Part shown: piece by piece, positions 10,549-21,852 of the stretch
Layout of the letters: each line of letters begins with the position of its first letter
How positions within the stretch are numbered: position 1 is the stretch's first letter
From: Kitasatospora sp. NBC_01250
GTDB taxonomy: Bacteria > Actinomycetota > Actinomycetes > Streptomycetales > Streptomycetaceae
DNA length: 64,000 nt
Direction of reading: 5' to 3'
Assembly (NCBI RefSeq): GCF_036226465.1
Contig: NZ_CP108476.1
Coordinates: forward strand, 2,294,001 to 2,358,000
Program-made: the position numbers and the translations under genes
The notes under the pieces: model-generated
Databases searched by the model: none
What the model saw: only the letters and a program-made list of their open reading frames with translations
What the model was told of the DNA's origin: nothing

Positions 10549-10708
10549 GCGTGCGCGGGCCAGGCCCGATGGCCCGCCCGACAGCGCTGCGAACACGAAC
10601 GGCCCGGACCGCCCAGCACCCGTGGGTGCACGATTGTCGCAGGCTTGTGACAGATCCCGCTCGCCGATTGGTCCGATTTACTCATTTTTAGTGCTTAGGC
10701 TTCAGTGC

Positions 10709-12751
10709 ATGTCTTCGTCGCACTCGGGCTCGTTCGTCCACAAGACCAAGCTCACCGCCACCTTCCTCGGTGTCAGTGTGGTGGCCGGCGCACTCACCGC
10801 GGGGCTCGCGCTGCCCGCCGTCGGTGGGCTCGGGCTGGGCGCCAAAAGCGCCGTGGGGGACTTCAACAGCCTGCCCGACGACTTCACCACACCCCCGCTC
10901 AGCCAGGCGTCGACGATCTACGACGCCAACGGCGGGGTGATCGCCACCGTCTTCGACCGCGACCGCACCGTGGTCCCCAGCGACCAGATATCCCCGCTGA
11001 TGAAGTCGGCGCTGGTGGACATCGAGGACAACCGCTTCTACCAGCACGGCGCGATCGACGTGAAGGGTGTGCTGCGCGCACTGAGCAGCAACGCCTCGGG
11101 CGGCGGCACCCAGGGCGCCTCCACGCTCACCCAGCAGTACGTGAAGAACGTCTTCGTCGAGGAGGCCGGCAACGACTCGGCGGCCGTCCAGGCGGCGCAG
11201 GCGCAGGACGTGGGCCGCAAGGTCAAGGAGATGAAGTACGCGATCAAGGTCGAGCAGACCCTGACCAAGGACCAGATCCTGACCAACTACCTCAACATCA
11301 CCTTCTTCGGTGAGCAGGCCTACGGGATCCAGGCCGCCTCCCAGCGCTACTTCGGCGTCGACGCCAAGGACCTCAGCCTGCCGCAGGCCGCACTGCTGGC
11401 CGGCCTGGTGCAGTCCCCCTCCGGGTACGACCCGATCGTCAACCCGAAGGCCGCCAAGGAGCGCCGGGACACCGTCCTGAAGAAGATGGCGCAGTACGGC
11501 ACGATCACCCAGGCCCAGGCCGACCAGGCGATCGCCACCCCGGTCACGCTGAACGTCAACAAGCCGAACCAGGGCTGCATCACCGCCCAGCAGGGCGAGG
11601 GCTTCTTCTGCGACTACGTGAAGAACCAGGTGCTCAACGACCCGGCGTTCGGTGCCAGCTCGGCCGACCGGGCGGCGCTCTGGAAGCGCGGCGGCCTGCA
11701 GATCCACACCACCCTGGATCCCACGGCCCAGACCGCCCTGCAGAAGTCGGTCACCGGCCACGTGTACGCCACCGACAAGGCGGCGACCGCGATGACCATC
11801 GTGCAGCCGGGCACCGGGAAGATCATCGCGATGGGCCAGAGCCGCCCGTACGGGGTGAACGCCAACCAGACGCAGATCAACTACAACGTCACCAAGTCGA
11901 TGGGCGGCGGCATCGGGTTCCCGACCGGCTCGACCTTCAAGCCGATCGTGGCGGCGGCGGCGCTGGAGAACGGGATCAACCCCTCGCAGTCCTACCCCTC
12001 GCCGTACAGCATGGCCTGGCCGAAGATGAAGGACTGCCAGGGCCAGGGCTTCCGCCCCGCCCAGGTGCACAACGACGCCACCTCGCTGGTCGGCCCCTTC
12101 ACCATGGCGCCGGCCATGGCGCAGTCGGTGAACACCTACTTCGCCTCGCTGGAGGCGGACGCCGGGCTGTGCAACGTGGCGCAGATGACCAACAAGCTCG
12201 GGATCACCCAGCAGGCCGGCAACGAGCCGCTGCAGGTGGTGCCGGCGATGGCGCTGGGCAGCAACGACCTGACCCCGCTGGAGATGGCGAACGTCTACGC
12301 GACCTTCGCCGCGCACGGCACGTACTGCACGCCGACCGCGATAGCCAGCGTCACCGGCCCCGACGGCAAGCCGCTGAACGTGCCGCAGAGCCAGTGCAGC
12401 CAGGCGATGTCGGCCACCACCGCGGACGAGATCACCACGATGCTCAAGGGCGTGGTGCAGGACGGCACCGGCAGCCCGGCCGGCCTCACCGACCGGGACA
12501 GCGCCGGCAAGACCGGCACCACCAACGACAGCGAGCAGGTCTGGTTCGTCGGCTACACGCCGGAGCTGGCGGGCGCCACGGTGGTCACCGACACCGACAA
12601 CCCGACCTCGCTGGACGGACAGCGGATCGGCGGCAAGTACGTCGACCAGGCCTTCGGCGGCACGCTGTCCGGGCCGATCTGGCGGGACGCGATGAGCGGC
12701 GCACTGCAGAACACCCCGCCGTCCTCGCTCGCCTCGGTGCCGCTGCCGTAG
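10709..12751 (+). CDS. Class A (bifunctional) penicillin-binding protein
   Basis: A 680-residue membrane enzyme that polymerises lipid II and crosslinks peptidoglycan outside the membrane. An N-terminal signal anchor (LTATFLGVSVVAGALTAGLA, about 13-32) leads to the GT51 glycosyltransferase, with the catalytic motif EDNRFYQHGAID near 106 and QGASTLTQQYVKN. The transpeptidase has the serine motif GSTFKP near 408, SVNTYF near 473 and KTGTTND near 600. The length fits actinobacterial class A enzymes and there is no C-terminal PASTA extension. ATG 10709 is chosen because the cytoplasmic head begins there; the ribosome-binding site is weak. It is flanked by terminators on both sides and is therefore monocistronic. 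Confidence 0.93.
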   Translation: MSSSHSGSFVHKTKLTATFLGVSVVAGALTAGLALPAVGGLGLGAKSAVGDFNSLPDDFTTPPLSQASTIYDANGGVIATVFDRDRTVVPSDQISPLMKSALVDIEDNRFYQHGAIDVKGVLRALSSNASGGGTQGASTLTQQYVKNVFVEEAGNDSAAVQAAQAQDVGRKVKEMKYAIKVEQTLTKDQILTNYLNITFFGEQAYGIQAASQRYFGVDAKDLSLPQAALLAGLVQSPSGYDPIVNPKAAKERRDTVLKKMAQYGTITQAQADQAIATPVTLNVNKPNQGCITAQQGEGFFCDYVKNQVLNDPAFGASSADRAALWKRGGLQIHTTLDPTAQTALQKSVTGHVYATDKAATAMTIVQPGTGKIIAMGQSRPYGVNANQTQINYNVTKSMGGGIGFPTGSTFKPIVAAAALENGINPSQSYPSPYSMAWPKMKDCQGQGFRPAQVHNDATSLVGPFTMAPAMAQSVNTYFASLEADAGLCNVAQMTNKLGITQQAGNEPLQVVPAMALGSNDLTPLEMANVYATFAAHGTYCTPTAIASVTGPDGKPLNVPQSQCSQAMSATTADEITTMLKGVVQDGTGSPAGLTDRDSAGKTGTTNDSEQVWFVGYTPELAGATVVTDTDNPTSLDGQRIGGKYVDQAFGGTLSGPIWRDAMSGALQNTPPSSLASVPLP

Positions 12752-12775
12752 GCGGTACCGCCGCAGGCGATGCCA

Positions 12776-12814
12776 CGGCCCGGGCCCGGCGGTCATTCCG
12801 CCGGGCCCGGGCCG
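12776..12814. terminator. Strong terminator hairpin after the PBP gene
   Basis: A perfect 17-bp stem (12776-12792 with 12798-12814) with loop TCATT, followed by a short TTT run. It separates the PBP gene from the converging small membrane-protein gene. Confidence 0.85.
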
Positions 12815-12844
12815 TTTCCGTTCAGCCGCCTCCGTTCGGCCGGC

Positions 12845-13318
12845 TCAGTCCGCGAGCAGCTCGGTCACCGGGCCGGTGGTGCGCACCCCGCCCGCGGCCA
12901 GCTGCCGGCGCAGCACGGCGCGCAGCTGGGCCAGTCCGGCCGGGCGCAGGCCGGAGAGCATCAGGTGGCAGCCGTGGCCGTCGCGGTCGGTGATCCTCAG
13001 CACCGGGCCACCGCGGGTCCGCGGCAGGGCACGTGCCTCGGCCAGCCGGTCGAGCGCGACGGTCTTCCAGACGACGAAGAGCCGCACTACCAGGCGATCG
13101 CCGTCCAGCGCCAGCAGCACCCTGGTCCGCACCAGGACGAGCAGCGCGACCGCCACCCCGAAAGCGAGGCAGATGCCCCGGCCCGCCGACGCCCGGACGA
13201 ACACGGCCACCAGCCCGGCGACGGCCAAGGGGATCACCGCGGCCCACTGCCACCGGCCGGAGGGCGTCAGAGCGATGGCGCCGGCGCTGATCGGCGGGCG
13301 GCGCAGAGAGTAGTACAT
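12845..13318 (-). CDS. Small two-helix membrane protein, PH-like; possible immunity gene
   Basis: A 157-residue protein with two adjacent hydrophobic segments (WAAVIPLAVAGLVAVFV and GICLAFGVAVALLVLV, about residues 27-65) and a C-terminal cytoplasmic region resembling bacterial PH-like domains (LLALDGDRLVVRLFVVWKTVALDRLAEA). The ATG at 13318 is preferred because GGAAGG lies 5-6 bases before it; a GTG at 13336 is possible. It is 103 bases downstream of the giant RHS gene on the same strand. In polymorphic-toxin loci this is where the immunity gene sits, and a membrane protein would suit a membrane-active toxin end. That role is inference only; a plain housekeeping membrane protein is the alternative. 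Confidence 0.65.
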   Translation of the reverse strand: MYYSLRRPPISAGAIALTPSGRWQWAAVIPLAVAGLVAVFVRASAGRGICLAFGVAVALLVLVRTRVLLALDGDRLVVRLFVVWKTVALDRLAEARALPRTRGGPVLRITDRDGHGCHLMLSGLRPAGLAQLRAVLRRQLAAGGVRTTGPVTELLAD

Positions 13319-13421
13319 GAGGTCCTTCCCTATCACGGGGTCGGGGAGACGCAGGGCCGAGCGCCGGGGTGCGGCCCGTTCGGCGGAACGGGCCGCACCC
13401 CGACCGGTCAGGGCGCGGACA

Positions 13422-16400
13422 CTACTGCTGGTGGCATCCCTGGTTGATCAGCCCTGGCGGGTCGATGCCGGCGAACATGCCGCCGACCCCGAGGCCGGGG
13501 ATGTTGGAGATGACGGAGGTCACGGCGGGGCCCCAGGGAGAGGTGGTGCTGATCCGACCGCCGAGACCGCCGGTCACACCACCGATGATCCCGTTGAAGG
13601 CGGCTTCGCCACCGGCCAGCCCCCAGTCGACCTTTCCGAGGCCTCCGTTGTCGTGCCATTGGGTGCCGACACTTGTGACGAAGCCGTCGGCTGCCCCGGA
13701 GACCGCGCCGGTCACCGCCGAGGCCGCGACGGTCGCACCGCACGGACCGCAGGCGCCGACCGCGGCACCGATGACCGCGCCGGCACCGGCGTCGATCGCG
13801 ACATCTCCCCAGTTGATGTGACCGCTGGCCGCACCGCTGACGATGCCGCCAATGGCACCGGCCGCACCACCGATCACCGCGCCGATCAGCGCGGTGCACC
13901 ATGGGAAGCACAGGCCGGTCCGGTCGGTGATGTTGACCGGACTGTCGTCGGTGTAGCCGTAGGCACTGTGGGTCGCGGCGATCGCCGGGTCCACCGTGAT
14001 GAACTGCGCGGTGGACGGGTCGTAGTAACGGGCTCGCAGGTAGACCAGACCCGACTCGCTGTCGTTGTAGTCACCACCGAAGCGGAGCGGCGTCCCGGCG
14101 ACGCCTGTGTGGCTGGTCTGGTTGCCGAAGGCGTCGTAGGCGTAGCCGGCGGCCGCCACGCCCGTGCCGTCCAGCAGCGCTCTGGTGGATCCGAGGGCGT
14201 CATGGAAGTACCAGAGGCTGCCGGTGGAGTTGATCTGCTCGATGGCCAGACCGCCAGGCCCATAGAGGTAATTGGTGGTGCCGTCACTGAGCAGGTCGGC
14301 GGCGGCCGCCGCGTCCCAGGTGAAAGCAGTGCTGACACCGCCGACGGTCTTGCTGATGCGCAGGCCCTGACCGTTGTATCCGTACGTGGCGGTGCCACCC
14401 GGGCCGCTGTAACCGGTGAGCTCGTCGGCCTGGTTGTAGGTGTAGCTCGTTGCCGTCCCGGTGATCGGGGTGGCGGCGGTGCGGTCTCCCTGGCTGTTGT
14501 AGGTGTAGGTGGTCGCGCCGACCGGCGGCGTGCCGCAGGCGGCGCTGCCGGTGGCGGCGCCCGGCAGGGTCCAGCACAACTGGCCGGCCGGGTCGAAGGC
14601 CTGGGCCGTGCCGGCGTTGGAGGTGGGACGTCCGGCCGCGTCGTAGCCGTACGCGGTCGTGGTCGACCCGGTGGTCGCCGAGTTCAACTCCTCACGCGGG
14701 CTGTACTGGTAGCTCTGCGCGGCGTCCGGCAGACCGGTCGGCGAGGTGCCCGAGAGCTGACCGGAGTTGTCCCGCGTGTAGCCGAGCGAGGCCAGCTGAG
14801 TCGTGCCGTGCGCCGCCGCCGCGCCGGTGATGCTGTCGGTGTCGTCGTAGGTGCTGCTGATGGTGTCACCGTTGGGATAGGTCACCGAAGTCACGTTGCC
14901 GTCGGCGTCGTAGCCGAAGCCGGTGGCGGCGTTGTTCCAGTCGGTCACGCCGGTGAGGTGGTTGGCCTTGTCGAAGGCCTGCGCGACCGGGGTCGTCTGC
15001 CCCGGGTAGCTGACCGAGGTCTGGTTGCCGTTGCTGTCGTAGCCGTAACCGACACTCGCTCCAGCGCCGTTGACCTCCTTGAGGACCTCGCCGAAGGCGT
15101 CGTAGGACCACGTCGTCGAGCCGGTGCCGTCCGTCATGCCGGTACGCCGGCCTCCCGCGTCGTAGCCGAAGGTGACTGCGGGTGTCCTGCCGTCGGAGTA
15201 GCTGATCGAGGTGACCTGTCCTGCCGGGTTGTAACCGTAGGTGGTGGTCTGGCCGGCCGGGTTGGTGACGGTCAGTACCTGGCCGAGGGTGTTCAGCGTG
15301 TAGGCGGTCTTCTGCTGGTCGGCATTGGTCTGGCTGTTCCGGTGGCCCTGCCCGTCATAGCCGTAGGACAGCTTGGCGCCGGTGGCGTCGACGGTGTCGG
15401 CCACCGTGCCGTCGGGGTTGTAGTCGGTGTGCGAGACGGTGTGGTCCGGCTTGGTGACCGAGGTCTCCCGGTCGTCCGCGTCGTAGGCGTAGCCGGTGGT
15501 CCGGTTGTTGCCGTCCGTGCTGGTGGTGCGGTTGTTGTCGGCGTCGTACGTCGCCAGGGTGGTGTGCCCGAGCGGGTCGGTGGTACTGGTGCGGTTGCCA
15601 TGGGCGTCGTACTGGTAGGTCGTGCAGCCCCTGGCGGGCGGGGTGCAGCCCGGGGCGGTGCCCGCTGCGGTGCCGACGGGGCTGACCGTGGAGCTCAGCA
15701 GGCCGCGGGCGGTGTCGTAGCCGTTCTTCGTCGTGTTGCCGAGCGGGTCGGTGACGCTGATGACGTCGCCCATCGCGTCATAGCCGGTCGTGGTGGTGTT
15801 GCCGCGGGCGTCGGTGGTCCGGGTGGCGTCGCCGGGGTGGGCCGGATCGTCATGGGAGACCGTGCTGGTGCGGGCGGGGGTGACGCCGTCGGTGGGCGTC
15901 TGCGTGGTCCCGGTGAGCTGGAGGGTGGTGGGGTCGTAGGTGTAGGTGGTCTGGAGACCGGCGGGGTCGGTGGTGGACATCAGGTTGTCGTTGGCGTCGT
16001 AGGCCTTGACCGTGGTGAACCCTCGGGGGTCACTGGCCGAGGTCTGGTTGCCGTGGTCGTCGTAGGTGAAGGTCTGCAGGCCGCCATTGGGGTCGGTGAT
16101 GCCGATGACGCCGAGGCTGACCGGGTCGTAGGAGTAGCTCCAGGTGCCCGCGGCGGAGCTGCCGTAGCCCTTGGTCTCGGTGACCAGCAGGCCGTTCTGG
16201 TAAGTGTCCAGGGTCTTGTGGCCGGCCGGGTCGGTGACCAGGGTCTGGCCGGCGACCAGCTGGGTGGTGCTGTCGGGGCCGTAGGTGAACCGGGTGGTGG
16301 CGCCGACCTGGTCGGTCTGGGTCAGGACGCGCTCGTTCGCGTCGTAGGTCGTCGAGACGACCGGGGAGGGGGTGGCGGTGCTGCCGAACTGGGCCGGCCT

Positions 16401-19400
16401 GCGGATGGAGTTCATCAGGTGCGCGGCCGTGTAGCCGTACTGCGCGTGGTCGTTGTCCTGGAGCGTCGGGGTGCGGATGGTGCCCACACCGTAGACGTCG
16501 GTCAGATTGCCGTTGCCGTCGTAGCCATAGCTGACCTGGCGGCCGGCGGTGTCGGTCAGCGCGGTGATGTGGCCGCCGGACCAGGTGAGAGTGTAGGCGC
16601 GGCCGGCCGGGTCGGTGATGGTGGACAGGTTGCCGTTGCTGTCGTAGGACAGCTTGGTGGCGTACGGCGGGGCGGCCTTGCTGCCCGCGACGTCGGTCTC
16701 GGCGGTCAGGTGGCCGGTGGCAGTGTCGAAGGTGTAGATCTCCTTCGACTGGCGGGTGAAGATGTAGGAGGAACCGCTGCCGGTCAGCGTGGCGTCGTAG
16801 CGCGGCGCGGACGGCGCGTAGCTGCCGTTCGTGTTCACGAACGTGACCTGGGAGCCGTCCTCCTGGTGGACGGTGACGTTGCCGGTGCTCGGATCGGTCG
16901 TGGTGCTGAGGTTGTAGGAGTCCGTCCAGCCCCAGCCGAACGGGCCGTTGACGGCCAGCGAGCCGTTGGGGCCGTTCGGGTCGGCGAGCGCGGAGGCATA
17001 GCTGCGGGTGAAGTTCAGCGGAATGCCGCGGCCCGGCGTGCTCAGGTCGGTGAAGTCGTCACCGAAGTAGCCGGTGCTGGTGTCGACCGGGTCACCGGCG
17101 GTGCGACGGGCGCAACCGCACTGGATGAAGGCCGGGTTGCTGCCCTTCGGCGCGTCCTGGACGGTCGGCGGGCCGCCGATCGGCTGGCCCGGCGTGCCGC
17201 CCTGCGGGATGAACGCGATCGCGTCGTAGGCGACGTCATAGCTGGAGTAGTCGATGTTGCCGGAGCCGTAGGTGTCACTCTTGTTGGTGAGCTGGACGTT
17301 GCCGCCGCTCTGCATCGCGAAGGTGCCGATGGTGACCCACTGTTCGGAGCCCCAGTCCTGGTTCACCCGGATCTTCCACGGGGCCACGCCCCCACCGGGG
17401 TTGATCGTGTAGACGACGTTGGTGGCCGAGGCGCCGGTGGCCGGCAGGTGCAGCTTGATCTTGTAGTACTGGAGCTTGGGCAGGTTCGGCGTCCAGGTAC
17501 CGGTGTCGACCTGGCTGGGGTCGGAGCCGTCGACCGTGTGGTTGAACAGGATGTGACCGCCGAAGCCGACGCCGAGTTGGTGGGTGTCGATCGCGCCGAG
17601 CGGTGCACCGGCCGCGTTCGTCCCGTAGCTGTAGCTGAAGGTGCCGCCCTGCGTCCAGTTCGGGTTGGCGCAGCCGACCAGGTTCAGGGGTGGATAGCTC
17701 TGCGACTCCGCGACGATGATCGGCGCGCCATTGGACGTGGTGGGGACCTTCGACGGGTCCACGTTGCAGGTCGGCGGGTGCGGGTCGGACTGGGCGGGCT
17801 CGGTCGAGCCGGCTGCCCAGGTGTAGTCACTGGTGGCGCAGGTGGTGGAGCAGTCGGGGATCCAGGTGGTGGGGGTGTGCCACCAGCACTCGCGGTCCGC
17901 CAGCGTGCAGTAGCTGATGTTCGGGTTGGACTGGTTGACGTAGGTCGGGTCGCACTTGCTGTCGGCGGTGCAGAACTGGCTGATCGGCGGGATCTGCGGC
18001 CAGGACTTGCCGCCGTGGTAGGTCGGCTTGGCGAAGGCCGGGGAGTAGGCGGTGCCGGTGTAGCGCAGGATCGGGCTGCCCATCCAGCCCATGATCCGCT
18101 CCTCGTACGGCCAACTGCCCGGGTGCCGGGCGTCGTCGTACGTCGTCGACAGGTACGGGGCGCGGTTGGGCGGGTAGTCCGGGTTCATCGGGTTGTTGCC
18201 CCAGCCCAGCCCCCAGGTGCCGTCGGGCCCCGTGCAGGTCGCGCTCGGCGTGCAGTTGGTGGTGTTGCCGTGCGCGGCATCGGGCTGTATGCCCGAGTTG
18301 TACGCCCAGGCGGCCAGGTACCAGTTCTCCAGGTAGCGCGGGTCGCCGCCATTGACCAGGATGCCCATGGAGTAGAGCTTGTTCCAGGTGTTCTCCAGGT
18401 TCTGCAGGCCCGCGGCGATGTTCTCCTGGTAGTCGACCGCGATCTTCATCTGACCGTGCGCCGAGAAGATGCCGTCACCGGTGGACATGCCCGCGGTGAC
18501 CTGGCCCAGACCGTAGCCGCAGTCGGCCTTGGAGTAGTCCAGCTGCGTCACGGTGCCGCCGGCGCCGTAGTAGTCACCGATCAGCGGGTCGCCGGGGATG
18601 CCGGGCACCGAGTGCCAGGAGGCCTGGCTGAAGTTGCTCTCCTGCGCCACGATCGCCTGGTAGACCGAGCGCGGCACCGAGTCCCAGCTGTCGCCGGCCG
18701 GGTGCTGCAGCGGGATCCGCGGGAAGTCGCCGTTGGGCGCGTAGGCGGCCAGGCCCAGGTTGGCGTAGTTCGCCGGACGGGTGTACTGCGAGCCGGTCAG
18801 CAGGCCCTGCTCGGCCATCTGCACCGCCCACTCCACCTGCGCGGCCGAGGGCTGCATCACCTGACGGTTCTCCGCCAGCCGGGGGACGGAACACTTGGGC
18901 GTCGTCGTGTTCGGCCCGGTGTCGGCCGGAACGGCGGCGGGGACGGTGGCCGGAGCCGCGGCCAGCAGGCCCTCGGAGAGCGCCTTGCCCTGCGTCGTAC
19001 CACCGCCCTGCGGTGCCGCCGGCGGGGCGGCTGAGCCGCCGCCGACCGTGGTGTCCGGCAGCACCGTCGAGGGCGCGGGGGTGTTGGTGGGCTTTGCCGG
19101 CTGCACCTGGGTGTTGCTCGCGGTCGCCACCACCAGCGGCGTGGCGGCATCCGTCTGCGGACCGGCGCCGAGCACGGCACCGCCGTCCAGTGACGCGGCG
19201 GACGCGCCCAGCGGCAGGCTCTTCGCGCTCGCCGCGACCAGACCCGCCTTGGCGTCGAGCTTGTCGGTGCCCACCACCACGGCCTTGCCCGCCCGGCCCG
19301 GCAGCAGTTGCACCGAGGTGCGCGGTCCCGAGCCGACCTGGGTCACCGTGCCGCCGTGCTCCTTCAGCACCGTCGCGTTCTGGTCGTCCTGGTGGACCGT

Positions 19401-20198
19401 CACGAACCCGACGGATCCGTCGGCGAGCGGCCGCAGGTCGAAGGCCGAGCCCGACACCTGGGCCAGCTTCTGCGGCTGCCCCGTCCTGGCGCCGCTCTCC
19501 GGGATCTTCACCAGGTTCGCGCCGACCACGCCGACCGGACCGTCACTCGTCGGCACCACCGAGGTGACCTGGGCGCCGACCGTCGTGATGTGCTGCACCT
19601 TCCCGGCGGCCAGGTCGACGGTGAGGACCTGGGTGGTCTGCTCCTCGACTCCCGGGTTGGAGGTGAAGGCCGCGAGGTCACCGGTGCCACAGCCCGGCGA
19701 GTAGTACTTCAGCGCCACACCGGCGGCCACCGGCCTGACCGTGCCGCTGCGCAGGTCCACCGAGTACGCGAACGCCCCGTGGTCCCGCGCCTCGGTGGAG
19801 TTCGCCGCGGAGGTCGGCAGCACCGTGACCGCCGCGAAGTCCCCGTCACCCGAGGTGCACTGGTAGCCCGTCCAGGAATCGTCGTCGATGCCTGCGGGCT
19901 TCAGCAGCGCCACCTCGCGCCAGCTGTATCCGTTACCGCCCTTGGCCACCGCCAGGTGGTACCCGCTCGCGTCACCCCAGCCGTTGAGCAGCACGTCGTC
20001 GGAGGGGCCGAGCGGCTTGCCGCCGCCGGTGGGCAAGGAGGAGGACGACGAGCCGGGCTTGGCCGGCTGCGCCGGCTTGGTGTCCGCGGTGGCCGGCGAG
20101 ACGACGCCGGCCACCAGAGCGACGGACAGCAGGCCCGCCACTGGTAGGCCGGGCGCCGGCCAGCCGCCGGCCCGGTCGAGAAAACGAGAGAGACGCAC
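13422..20198 (-). CDS. Giant secreted RHS-repeat protein with lysozyme-like and golvesin-like domains
   Basis: A protein of about 2258 residues. A signal peptide (LLSVALVAGVVSPATA) is followed by a beta-propeller-like region (about 40-330), a Pro/Thr-rich linker, and a lysozyme-like transglycosylase segment with the catalytic-type glutamate in VAQESNFSQ near 519 and GYGLGQVTAGM near 562. A golvesin/Xly-type beta domain follows (about 850-970), then RHS/YD repeats from DPVDTSTGYF near 1040 to about 2000. The RHS core closes with GLVYLRARYYDPSTAQFITV. The last 180 residues are Gly/Ala-rich with glycine-zipper helices (IGGAAGAIGGIVSGAASG) and no enzyme motif. I chose the GTG at 20198 because it gives a normal signal peptide; a GTG at 20264 would add 22 charged residues. 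It looks like a wall-crossing toxin-delivery or surface protein, tip function unknown. Confidence 0.85.
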   Translation of the reverse strand: MRLSRFLDRAGGWPAPGLPVAGLLSVALVAGVVSPATADTKPAQPAKPGSSSSSLPTGGGKPLGPSDDVLLNGWGDASGYHLAVAKGGNGYSWREVALLKPAGIDDDSWTGYQCTSGDGDFAAVTVLPTSAANSTEARDHGAFAYSVDLRSGTVRPVAAGVALKYYSPGCGTGDLAAFTSNPGVEEQTTQVLTVDLAAGKVQHITTVGAQVTSVVPTSDGPVGVVGANLVKIPESGARTGQPQKLAQVSGSAFDLRPLADGSVGFVTVHQDDQNATVLKEHGGTVTQVGSGPRTSVQLLPGRAGKAVVVGTDKLDAKAGLVAASAKSLPLGASAASLDGGAVLGAGPQTDAATPLVVATASNTQVQPAKPTNTPAPSTVLPDTTVGGGSAAPPAAPQGGGTTQGKALSEGLLAAAPATVPAAVPADTGPNTTTPKCSVPRLAENRQVMQPSAAQVEWAVQMAEQGLLTGSQYTRPANYANLGLAAYAPNGDFPRIPLQHPAGDSWDSVPRSVYQAIVAQESNFSQASWHSVPGIPGDPLIGDYYGAGGTVTQLDYSKADCGYGLGQVTAGMSTGDGIFSAHGQMKIAVDYQENIAAGLQNLENTWNKLYSMGILVNGGDPRYLENWYLAAWAYNSGIQPDAAHGNTTNCTPSATCTGPDGTWGLGWGNNPMNPDYPPNRAPYLSTTYDDARHPGSWPYEERIMGWMGSPILRYTGTAYSPAFAKPTYHGGKSWPQIPPISQFCTADSKCDPTYVNQSNPNISYCTLADRECWWHTPTTWIPDCSTTCATSDYTWAAGSTEPAQSDPHPPTCNVDPSKVPTTSNGAPIIVAESQSYPPLNLVGCANPNWTQGGTFSYSYGTNAAGAPLGAIDTHQLGVGFGGHILFNHTVDGSDPSQVDTGTWTPNLPKLQYYKIKLHLPATGASATNVVYTINPGGGVAPWKIRVNQDWGSEQWVTIGTFAMQSGGNVQLTNKSDTYGSGNIDYSSYDVAYDAIAFIPQGGTPGQPIGGPPTVQDAPKGSNPAFIQCGCARRTAGDPVDTSTGYFGDDFTDLSTPGRGIPLNFTRSYASALADPNGPNGSLAVNGPFGWGWTDSYNLSTTTDPSTGNVTVHQEDGSQVTFVNTNGSYAPSAPRYDATLTGSGSSYIFTRQSKEIYTFDTATGHLTAETDVAGSKAAPPYATKLSYDSNGNLSTITDPAGRAYTLTWSGGHITALTDTAGRQVSYGYDGNGNLTDVYGVGTIRTPTLQDNDHAQYGYTAAHLMNSIRRPAQFGSTATPSPVVSTTYDANERVLTQTDQVGATTRFTYGPDSTTQLVAGQTLVTDPAGHKTLDTYQNGLLVTETKGYGSSAAGTWSYSYDPVSLGVIGITDPNGGLQTFTYDDHGNQTSASDPRGFTTVKAYDANDNLMSTTDPAGLQTTYTYDPTTLQLTGTTQTPTDGVTPARTSTVSHDDPAHPGDATRTTDARGNTTTTGYDAMGDVISVTDPLGNTTKNGYDTARGLLSSTVSPVGTAAGTAPGCTPPARGCTTYQYDAHGNRTSTTDPLGHTTLATYDADNNRTTSTDGNNRTTGYAYDADDRETSVTKPDHTVSHTDYNPDGTVADTVDATGAKLSYGYDGQGHRNSQTNADQQKTAYTLNTLGQVLTVTNPAGQTTTYGYNPAGQVTSISYSDGRTPAVTFGYDAGGRRTGMTDGTGSTTWSYDAFGEVLKEVNGAGASVGYGYDSNGNQTSVSYPGQTTPVAQAFDKANHLTGVTDWNNAATGFGYDADGNVTSVTYPNGDTISSTYDDTDSITGAAAAHGTTQLASLGYTRDNSGQLSGTSPTGLPDAAQSYQYSPREELNSATTGSTTTAYGYDAAGRPTSNAGTAQAFDPAGQLCWTLPGAATGSAACGTPPVGATTYTYNSQGDRTAATPITGTATSYTYNQADELTGYSGPGGTATYGYNGQGLRISKTVGGVSTAFTWDAAAAADLLSDGTTNYLYGPGGLAIEQINSTGSLWYFHDALGSTRALLDGTGVAAAGYAYDAFGNQTSHTGVAGTPLRFGGDYNDSESGLVYLRARYYDPSTAQFITVDPAIAATHSAYGYTDDSPVNITDRTGLCFPWCTALIGAVIGGAAGAIGGIVSGAASGHINWGDVAIDAGAGAVIGAAVGACGPCGATVAASAVTGAVSGAADGFVTSVGTQWHDNGGLGKVDWGLAGGEAAFNGIIGGVTGGLGGRISTTSPWGPAVTSVISNIPGLGVGGMFAGIDPPGLINQGCHQQ

Positions 20199-20676
20199 TG
20201 GGAAAGGGATCCTGACTTCTTCAGGTGCGCACCGGCGCTCCCCGCGCGCGCTCCGGCGTCGCACGGATGCTGTGAAAAATACGGGGACTGTCCTGCCGAG
20301 GGCAGCAGCGGGCAGGCGGAGGGAGCCTCACCCCTTGGCGAGGTGGGCCCTCGGGTCGACGCCTCGGCTGTCTTCGGACGAGATGGTAGTTCGTCGCCGA
20401 TGGCGCACGGTAGTGCACTTGTTGATTCGTTACCGAATCAGTTGAAGAAAAGAGAGCCAACCGGCGATTGCCATGGCAGCCCGGGGCAAAGCGGACAATC
20501 CCGCTCATTCATTCTCCTGATAAATCATCAGCCATCTTCCAAAATCCGAGATTTGACAACCCTGATTTCTATGTGATGAAAATCCATCACCTCGGTAGCA
20601 CCGCGGCGCCAGCCGCGCCCCGCGCCATCTTGATCATTTTCGGAACGAAATAACAGAGCGACCCAAAGGACCCTCC
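20199..20676. other. AT-richer divergent regulatory region
   Basis: This 478-base gap separates the RHS gene from the divergent lectin gene. Its right half (about 20370-20670) is much richer in A and T than the rest of the window, with runs such as AAAATCCGAGATTTGAC. It holds a TTGACA hexamer at 20553-20558 without a good -10 partner, a 7-bp inverted repeat at 20423-20440 and a 6-bp one (GTGATG/CATCAC) at 20573-20590. No gene is visible. The base composition suggests regulatory DNA or a recently acquired segment. Confidence 0.6.
20423..20440. promoter_or_regulatory. Inverted repeat TGATTCG-N4-CGAATCA, probable operator
   Basis: A perfect 7-bp inverted repeat with a TTAC spacer sits in the AT-rich gap between the RHS gene and the lectin gene. 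Its size and symmetry fit a dimeric repressor site. The regulator is not encoded next to it. Confidence 0.5.
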
Positions 20677-21171
20677 ATGAAGAAAATCACCAAGCGGGTC
20701 GGAACTCTCGCAGTGGCGACCGGCGTGGCGTTCGCCACCCTGCTCACAGGCGCCACCTCGGCGTTCGCCCTCCCTGGCGGCCCGAGCGAGCGCCTGTCCA
20801 CCAGCACGCCGAACTTTGGCTGCGGCGCGGCCTGGTATGCGGCCCAGACCACCCTGAAGTTCCAGTGCGACGGAAACCTGGTGCTGTACCGAAACAGCGA
20901 TGGTCACGCCATGTGGGCCACCGGCACCTACGGCACCACCAACAATCCGACCATCCTCGACTTCTCGCACAACGGCGACATCGAGATGCTCAGGACCGAG
21001 GACTGGGGAACCGGCGTCTTCTGCGACCTCGGAAGCGACAATCCTGCACCGGGCGGCACCGCGGTGATCCAGGACGACGGGAACTTCGTCATCTACAACA
21101 CCGCTGGACAGGCGACCTGGGCGACCGGCACCTACAACAACCAGCAGGGCACGGTGCACGCCTGTCAGTAA
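20677..21171 (+). CDS. Secreted bulb-type mannose-binding lectin domain protein
   Basis: A 164-residue secreted protein. A Sec signal peptide (MKKITKRVGTLAVATGVAF, cleavage near TSAFA-LP, about residue 31) is followed by a single B-lectin domain. The mannose-binding pattern Q-x-D-x-N-x-V-x-Y appears as QCDGNLVLY and again as QDDGNFVIY, each followed by ATWATGTY- or MWATGTY-type turns. Two or more cysteines probably form disulphides. Domains of this kind occur in plant lectins and in lectin-like bacteriocins such as LlpA, though those have two such domains. ATG 20677 has the ribosome-binding site AAAGGA. The gene is divergent from the RHS gene across AT-rich DNA and ends with a strong terminator. 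Role: sugar binding outside the cell; antibacterial activity is speculation. Confidence 0.85.
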   Translation: MKKITKRVGTLAVATGVAFATLLTGATSAFALPGGPSERLSTSTPNFGCGAAWYAAQTTLKFQCDGNLVLYRNSDGHAMWATGTYGTTNNPTILDFSHNGDIEMLRTEDWGTGVFCDLGSDNPAPGGTAVIQDDGNFVIYNTAGQATWATGTYNNQQGTVHACQ

Positions 21172-21267
21172 TGGCGCGCATTTCTCGCGATACCCGGGCG
21201 CTGGTGAATAGGCGTCAGCATGGGATCCATGGAAATAATGCTGCGTCAGAACTGGATGCATCCCGCC

Positions 21268-21314
21268 GAAGCCGCCGTGGGCACTGACCAGGGGTCAGTG
21301 CCCACGGCGGCTTC
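21268..21314 (+). terminator. Very strong terminator after the lectin gene
   Basis: A perfect 22-bp stem (21268-21289 with 21293-21314) around a 3-base loop, 97 bases after the lectin stop. The rest of the gap up to 21459 holds the promoter region of the next gene and no other structure I can see. Confidence 0.85.
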
Positions 21315-21459
21315 GTGGTACTCCGAGGCACGAGGCCGCCCCAGGGGCACCACGCAGCCAGGATCGAGGGGCACTGTCGGTTGACAGGGCGTCAGCGGTA
21401 GGCCACGATCCTTAGTGGAAATGGATTTCATTTCGCTCACGTGAACGGAGCCCTCCAGC

Positions 21460-21852
21460 ATGTCTCTCACCGTCTCCCCCGAACTGCTCGCCCAGGCCGA
21501 GGCCGGGGAGGTCGCCGAAGCCGACTTCGTCGCCACCGTCCGCGAGTCGCTCCCCTACGCCTACGGGATGGTCGAGCAGCTCAGCATCGAACTGGCCGCC
21601 GGCGGTGTCGCGTTCGCGGACAACCAGGTGGAGCCACCGTCGGACGCCGAGCGCGGGCAGTTGCTGCGCGCGATGGCCAGCGACTCGATCCGGGGCAGCC
21701 TGGAGCGGCACTTCGGCGTGCGGCTGGCGTTCATGAACTGCCACCGGGTGGCGGTCTTCCCGGTCGGTGCGGAGCAGGGCGCGGAGTACCGGGCGTTCGT
21801 CTCGATGCGCGCCCAGCTGCTCAACCAGACACCCGAGCTGCGCAGTTGCTGA
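21460..21852 (+). CDS. SCO5389-family conserved protein
   Basis: A 130-residue cytoplasmic protein with no signal peptide or membrane helix. The sequence MSLTVSPELLAQAEAGEVAEADFV and the block FADNQVEPPSDAERGQLLRAM, with the ending RHFGVRLAFMNCHRVAVFP, resembles what I recall as the SCO5389 family of Streptomyces, whose function is not established. It starts at the ATG at 21460 with ACGGAG upstream and ends before a strong hairpin terminator, so it is its own transcription unit. The family name is from memory and should be confirmed. Confidence 0.7.
   Translation: MSLTVSPELLAQAEAGEVAEADFVATVRESLPYAYGMVEQLSIELAAGGVAFADNQVEPPSDAERGQLLRAMASDSIRGSLERHFGVRLAFMNCHRVAVFPVGAEQGAEYRAFVSMRAQLLNQTPELRSC

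What the first reader, a model, noticed from the sequence alone, without database searches (positions are those of the whole stretch)
13422..21171. Possible polymorphic-toxin/lectin block: giant RHS protein, small membrane protein, divergent lectin
A secreted RHS protein with a lysozyme-like domain, which could open a path through the wall, ends in a glycine-zipper tail without a recognisable toxin. Directly downstream is a two-helix membrane protein in the usual immunity position, and divergently a secreted bulb-lectin. The intergenic AT-rich DNA differs from the surrounding chromosome. Together they could form a contact-dependent antagonism or surface-binding module, with the tail acting as a membrane-active tip.
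Basis: partly seen in the sequence, partly recalled or inferred. Interest (0 to 1): 0.7.

Follow-up and report, generated by a model that had tools for sequence, protein, structure and literature searches.

The report
Secreted Rhs toxin with membrane-type tip
A soil bacterium carries an inserted weapon-like gene whose giant secreted protein has a swappable tip; here the tip looks membrane-attacking and sits beside a small membrane protein that probably protects the producer, and relatives show the same body with other tips and matching partners.

Summary
Window 13422-20264(-) is an Rhs protein (SLT-like, golvesin, Rhs body) with a 162-aa glycine-zipper tail, followed by P0002 (12845-13318), a two-helix protein with a PH-like domain. 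In ten aligned members body identity is 0.55-0.85, then 0.21-0.30 right after the D(P/R)xGL junction: the tail is swapped. One relative carries a colicin-E3-type RNase there. Among 23 loci, the window included, 12 of 16 hydrophobic tails but 0 of 7 hydrophilic ones have a small neighbour with two or more TM segments (hand-picked); a fixed rule gives 9 of 16, 0 of 7, and 3 of 139 control genes. P0002 is homologous to partners of an unrelated tail type, and displaced tail/partner remnants exist. Most likely this is a polymorphic toxin with a membrane-active tip and P0002 as immunity protein: Tse5/Tsi5-like in action, on a secreted actinobacterial chassis. The lectin shares the 8.6-kb insertion but not the Rhs gene's distribution. 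Toxicity is untested; the genome's second copy of this Rhs gene lacks a P0002-like neighbour.

The parts
12755..21370 (.). Insertion holding P0002, the Rhs gene and the lectin, between a PBP gene (10622-12751) and a PF20704 gene (21460-21852)
   Evidence: Empty site in L178, L179, L180: blastn matches stop at 12751-12759 and resume at 21370-21375
13422..20264 (-). Rhs protein P0001, 2280 codons from the first GTG; by eye the true start may lie 16-22 codons further in, before a signal-peptide-like stretch
   Evidence: signal peptide judged by eye only
18279..18677 (-). SLT/lysozyme-like region (residues 530-662)
   Evidence: Pfam SLT below cut-off; E72-S73, G115/Q118 and A184-Y185-N186/G188 of the alignment invariant in 10 of 10 (that these are SLT motifs is recalled)
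17268..17516 (-). Golvesin_C domain PF25275 (residues 917-999)
   Evidence: 10 of 10 members
16839..17096 (-). DUF6531 (residues 1057-1142)
13911..16838 (-). RHS/YD repeats and Rhs-associated core, ending at the junction DRTGL (13911-13925)
   Evidence: junction Asp pair in 23 of 23 loci
13425..13910 (-). Variable tail, 162 aa, hydrophobic, glycine zippers: proposed membrane-active toxin tip
   Evidence: found only in the own genome, two copies
13365..13402 (.). Perfect hairpin (17-bp arms) between the Rhs stop and the P0002 start
12845..13318 (-). P0002, 157 aa, two TM helices and a PH-like domain: proposed immunity protein
20677..21171 (+). Single-domain B-type lectin with a signal-peptide-like start (by eye); in the insertion but probably not part of the toxin module

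Best explanation
A polymorphic toxin-immunity module on a secreted Rhs chassis. The protein is exported through a Sec-type signal (inferred by eye). Its SLT-like domain may loosen peptidoglycan (inferred). The Rhs shell would hold the C-terminal tip and release it by the Asp-pair cleavage known from other Rhs proteins (motif seen here, cleavage not shown). The glycine-zipper tail would then insert into the target cell membrane and depolarise it (inferred). P0002, a two-helix membrane protein with a PH-like domain, would block the tip in the producer's membrane (inferred from position, homology and co-variation).
For: Body identity 0.55-0.85 drops to 0.21-0.30 right after the junction in ten members. 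PF09000 at 1.5e-33 in the tail of L175, whose body is 59.5% identical, with an 89-aa gene 0 nt downstream. Hydrophobic tails: 12 of 16 with a small neighbour of at least 2 TM segments; hydrophilic: 0 of 7; Fisher P 0.0013. Fixed rule: 9 of 16 against 3 of 139 control genes, P 2e-8, and against 0 of 7, P 0.019. Of 11 locus pairs with strongly similar tails (over 80 bits), 7 have similar neighbours at E<1e-3. TM-TM-PH genes follow tail B in 3 of 4 Rhs loci and one orphan tail. The P0002 pair and the tail-B partner pair are homologous (hhalign 95.4%, E 2e-8); tails A and B are not detectably so (1.1%). Displaced remnants in L080 and L150. Zippers exceed shuffles.
Against: No toxicity data, and the tail resembles no known toxin family. 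The paralogue with the same tail type has no P0002-like neighbour. L083 has no same-strand partner (a convergent two-TM-like frame at 10734-11192 was not counted), and L079's hydrophobic tail has a soluble neighbour. Four of the 11 pairs with similar tails do not have similar neighbours at that limit (L005/window, L045/L165, L048/L082, L081/L166). Of the four TM-TM-PH family hits that were not used to build the profile, two stand apart from such genes. Zippers are not enriched in most other hydrophobic tails. The tail model is poor (pLDDT 42). A hairpin separates the Rhs gene and P0002.
Confidence: 0.7

Rival explanations
1. The tail is only a hydrophobic linker left after loss of an enzymatic toxin domain, and P0002 is a leftover or unrelated gene.
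For: Relatives with charged tips also have a hydrophobic stretch after the junction (L081, L162, L166, L175). No tail domain recognised. No P0002-like neighbour for the paralogue.
Against: Both own-genome copies keep intact 2280- and 2291-codon frames and are 42% identical over the tail. Hydrophobic tails occur in 16 of 23 loci, 12 of them with a small neighbour of two or more TM segments.
Confidence: 0.17
2. The protein is a surface adhesin or wall-remodelling protein; the tail anchors it in the producer's own membrane or wall, and P0002 helps placement.
For: The SLT-golvesin half also occurs without an Rhs body (26 such proteins examined: 7 with a GDSL hydrolase match, 2 NucA/NucB-like, 7 with 30 aa or less after golvesin, 10 unassigned).
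Against: An anchor should be conserved, yet the tail is the most variable part of the aligned proteins, together with the N-terminal 100 residues (0.34); a colicin-E3-type RNase takes the same place in L175.
Confidence: 0.08
3. Rhs, P0002 and lectin act together, the lectin aiming the toxin at mannose-bearing cells.
For: All three lie in one insertion; two QxDxNxVxY-like motifs in the lectin (motif recalled).
Against: No lectin homologue at E<=1e-10 in the other three Rhs-bearing genomes of the genus, nor in the nine other Rhs loci compared (E 1e-4). The two nearest homologues lie beside ftsX-like and hemC-like genes (names by eye).
Confidence: 0.05

Closest known systems
Tse5/Tsi5 of Pseudomonas aeruginosa (PMC9637101, passages read; PMC10684867, abstract and section list read)
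   Same: Rhs protein with a DPxGL-type junction, a non-enzymatic C-terminal membrane-acting tip, and an immunity protein with two predicted transmembrane regions.
   Different: Tse5 is delivered by a type VI system with a PAAR-like N-terminus; here a signal peptide (by eye), SLT-like and golvesin domains, and a PH-like domain on the partner. Pore formation is not shown here.
WapA secreted Rhs toxins of Bacillota (PMC12704120, passages read)
   Same: Large Rhs proteins with a signal peptide and swapped C-terminal toxins in Gram-positive bacteria.
   Different: No wall-anchoring domain was matched here; different N-terminal module and tail type.
Glycine-zipper depolarising toxins EsxX and TelE (PMC12744356, passages read)
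   Same: C-terminal extended glycine zipper; membrane immunity proteins against toxin coming from outside.
   Different: LXG proteins of type VII secretion; six-TM and soluble immunity proteins.
CDI ionophore toxins (PMC11630599, passages read)
   Same: Polymorphic membrane-depolarising tips with highly variable cognate immunity proteins.
   Different: CdiA two-partner secretion in Gram-negative bacteria.

Membership tests
Rhs polymorphic toxins | RHS/YD repeats and Rhs-associated core | tested here: met
   PF05593 2.3e-70, TIGR03696 5.5e-18
Rhs polymorphic toxins | Asp-pair junction before the tip | tested here: met
   Both Asp in 23 of 23 loci; the window has DRTGL instead of DPxGL
Rhs polymorphic toxins | Conserved body with variable C-terminal tip | tested here: met
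   Identity profile on 10 members; tails of 23 loci listed
Rhs polymorphic toxins | Small neighbouring gene that changes with the tip | tested here: met
   Hand-picked same-strand neighbour within 400 nt in 18 of 23, convergent in 3, none credited for L005 and L083; 7 of 11 similar-tail pairs have similar neighbours
Rhs polymorphic toxins | Toxic tip neutralised by its partner | not testable with these tools
   Needs expression
Tse5-type Rhs pore-formers | Two-TM immunity protein | tested here: met
   Helices 22-40 and 44-65 in a pLDDT 85 model; that it is an immunity protein is inferred
Tse5-type Rhs pore-formers | PAAR/T6SS N-terminus | tested here: not met
   No such Pfam or NCBIfam match in P0001
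Tse5-type Rhs pore-formers | Pore formation | not testable with these tools
   Needs a bilayer or depolarisation assay
WapA | Wall-anchoring or wall-binding N-terminal domain | tested here: not met
   Not among the four Pfam matches of P0001 at E<=0.05; that Pfam holds a WapA model is recalled
Bacterial PH domain proteins | PH-like fold of the partner | tested here: inconclusive
   PF10756 below cut-off in 3 of 8 members, not in P0002 itself. Most top structural rows are PH domains, but Z is at most 7.3 and the best Foldseek E is 0.0064
Putidacin-type lectin-like bacteriocins | Protein over the curated family cut-off | tested here: not met
   P0003 scores 50.4 bits against a cut-off of 275

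The most novel reading that the evidence does not exclude
An undescribed secreted weapon platform of Actinomycetota: an SLT-golvesin wall-passing half that accepts Rhs-caged toxin tips (and, without Rhs, hydrolase or DNase-like payloads), with a new immunity class in which a two-helix hairpin plus PH-like domain guards the producer's membrane against unrelated membrane-active tips.
Probability: 0.4. Interest if true: 0.75.

Novelty: new variant of a known kind. Interest (0 to 1): 0.58.

Why it matters
How Gram-positive bacteria pass Rhs proteins of over 300 kDa through their walls is described as unsolved (PMC12704120, passage), and the membrane-acting Rhs tip I found described in print belongs to a type VI system (Tse5). 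A natural set of 23 loci with one body, nuclease or membrane-type tips, and soluble or membrane neighbours would make delivery and immunity testable in soil bacteria and laboratory strains.

Tried and rejected
Lectin as part of the module: rejected as above. TM-TM-PH proteins as an immunity-only family: not supported, since some stand alone. A class-wide search for P0002 relatives (394 genomes) gave, besides the own genome, only weak matches (E 1.3e-7 to 4.7e-7) in 5 genomes, not followed up. The tail was found in 1 of 394 class genomes, the own one. A first genome-contig scan with the tail confirmed nothing; that collection may leave out the window's own genome. P0002 has no match in the plasmid collection. 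The N-module profile matched no PDB chain. The tail model is too uncertain to search. The all-against-all comparison at E<1e-3 is inflated by Gly/Ala-rich tails (both similar 7, tail only 55, neighbour only 2, neither 167), so I use pairs over 80 bits. The neighbour list was picked by hand with the idea known; one search repeats it by a fixed rule, written after the loci had been seen, which picks another frame for L045, L046, L165 and L173. The promoter/terminator scan found no promoter-like site and about the chance number of terminators. L163 and L164 repeat L045 and L046 and were dropped before counting. L176 is frame-broken; only its last frame was used. L169 is counted from a late start. 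A1 was built from P0002, the G029 orphan and the L046 and L048 partners, so those four hits are not independent, and the L082 partner was not recovered there at E<=0.001.

Full report
Check. P0001 carries RHS repeats, DUF6531, Golvesin_C and an Rhs-associated core; its SLT-like region is below Pfam's cut-off here but matches at E<=0.1 in 8 of 10 aligned members, the window among them. The last 162 residues match no family in Pfam, NCBIfam or PADLOC and hold more glycine-zipper patterns than shuffles of the same composition.

Surroundings. A PF20704 search found matches in 25 of 25 genomes, the own one included; four neighbourhoods were fetched. In L178, L179 and L180 the PBP gene and the PF20704 gene are neighbours and nothing resembling window 12755-21370 lies between; L181 matched only the PF20704 gene. 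P0002, Rhs and lectin are therefore one inserted block or stacked insertions.

Distribution. The SLT-golvesin half is found in 14 of 70 genomes of the genus at E<=0.001, in one of them (G051) by the golvesin part only, and in 90 of 394 of the family at E<=1e-30. Ten places, in nine genomes, carry the Rhs body; places not fetched were judged by identity and open-frame length, at most 1895 aa. A second collection gave 15 named loci: Streptomyces, Luteimicrobium, Actinokineospora, Specibacter, Curtobacterium, Amycolatopsis, Galbitalea and an Arthrobacter plasmid. Two repeats were dropped, leaving 23 loci with the window and its paralogue included. The own genome has nine Rhs_assc_core places in all.

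Tip swapping. In ten members, mean pairwise identity per 100 residues is 0.55-0.85 from residue 501 to 2100 and 0.21-0.30 in 40-residue steps beyond 2119; the N-terminal 100 residues are also variable, 0.34. In L175 the tip is PF09000 Cytotoxic, E 1.5e-33. L081, L162 and L166 have charged tips; most others are hydrophobic. The tail of this window was found only in the own genome, 1 of 70 in the genus and 1 of 394 in the class, the second copy being the paralogue (55% identity over the protein; tail 42%).

Partners. Hydrophobic means that the last 110 residues have mean hydropathy above 0. By hand-picked neighbours, 12 of 16 hydrophobic and 0 of 7 hydrophilic tails have a neighbour of at most 200 aa with two or more TM segments (P 0.0013); among other small genes of these loci it is 10 of 150. 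By a fixed rule it is 9 of 16, 0 of 7 and 3 of 139 control genes. Exceptions: L005 (none), L083 (no same-strand one), L079 (soluble), L046 (one segment at this threshold, although homologous to two-helix partners). Tail B loci L046, L048 and L082, and an orphan tail-B fragment in L150, are followed by TM-TM-PH genes; L083, the fourth tail-B-like locus, is not. Tail C loci L045, L080 and L165 are followed by 64-72-aa two-helix proteins. Of 11 pairs with tails similar at over 80 bits, 7 have similar neighbours; the two pairs with similar neighbours but unlike tails are the window with L046 and with L048.

P0002. One match in the own genome. Modelled at pLDDT 85 as two helices, six strands between residues 68 and 120 and a C-terminal helix. 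Most structural matches are PH domains, but none is strong. Profiles of the P0002 pair and of the tail-B partner pair match at 95.4% probability; tails A and B do not. Of eight family places with E<1e-14, four were in the profile itself (own, G036, G052, G029). Of the other four, G151 follows the orphan tail B, G087 is one gene away from an SLT-golvesin gene, and G084 and G113 stand apart, as does G029.

Displacement traces. Behind its tail-C pair, L080 holds a short Rhs fragment (21 aa, 67%), a homologue of L079's neighbour (47.8%) and a 278-bp piece 99% identical to the orphan tail-B/partner region of L150. Such leftovers are expected of tip exchange.

C-terminal Cys. In 19 of 23 tails a Cys lies within the last 8 residues; the four without are L081, L162, L166 and L175. 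Its role is unknown.

Mechanism. Shown: chassis, variable tip, linked neighbour type, junction Asp pair. Inferred: secretion, wall cutting, cleavage, membrane insertion, immunity. Tse5/Tsi5, with its two-TM immunity protein and an Asp-pair junction, is the nearest working model.

Literature. Searches on Rhs with glycine zipper, Streptomyces polymorphic toxins, golvesin, Rhs with Tse5, Rhs with WapA and Streptomyces, bacterial PH domain with immunity protein, Rhs with transglycosylase, Kitasatospora Rhs toxin, and Rhs toxin with Actinomycetota listed no paper whose title or start of abstract describes this chassis or PH-type immunity proteins. Two listings were cut (20 of 21, 10 of 24), and the library lacks most subscription journals. 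PMC3482391 has no occurrence of PH domain or SLT in the held 300,000 of 357,715 characters.

Noticed in passing
L005:3222-11584: Full-length paralogue near the chromosome end without a P0002-like neighbour; the next same-strand gene, 353 nt on, is a NucA/NucB-like protein (PF14040, E 4.2e-7).
   Followed up: partly
L047, L049-L054, L084-L098: The SLT-golvesin half without Rhs carries other payloads: of 26 proteins, 7 GDSL hydrolase, 2 NucA/NucB-like, 7 with 30 aa or less, 10 unassigned.
   Followed up: partly
L175:14888-15646: Colicin-E3-type RNase tip with an 89-aa gene starting right after it.
   Followed up: yes
L168:15346-16375: Two tandem homologous small genes (38.6% identity) behind one Rhs gene.
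   Followed up: partly
L080:10784-12146 and L150:8962-9731: Displaced tail and partner remnants; a transposase-like gene (by eye) lies near them in L150, and a 93% identical copy of that stretch in L080.
   Followed up: yes
L155:8127-8810 and L183:11151-11630: The two closest lectin homologues stand singly among unrelated housekeeping-like genes (names by eye).
   Followed up: yes
21460-21852: A PF20704 (NucS shadow) gene; a second copy lies at G000:C1:5796364.
   Followed up: no
tails of 19 of the 23 loci, window 13425-13910 included: A Cys within the last 8 residues in every tail except L081, L162, L166 and L175, often with an earlier Cys pair.
   Followed up: no
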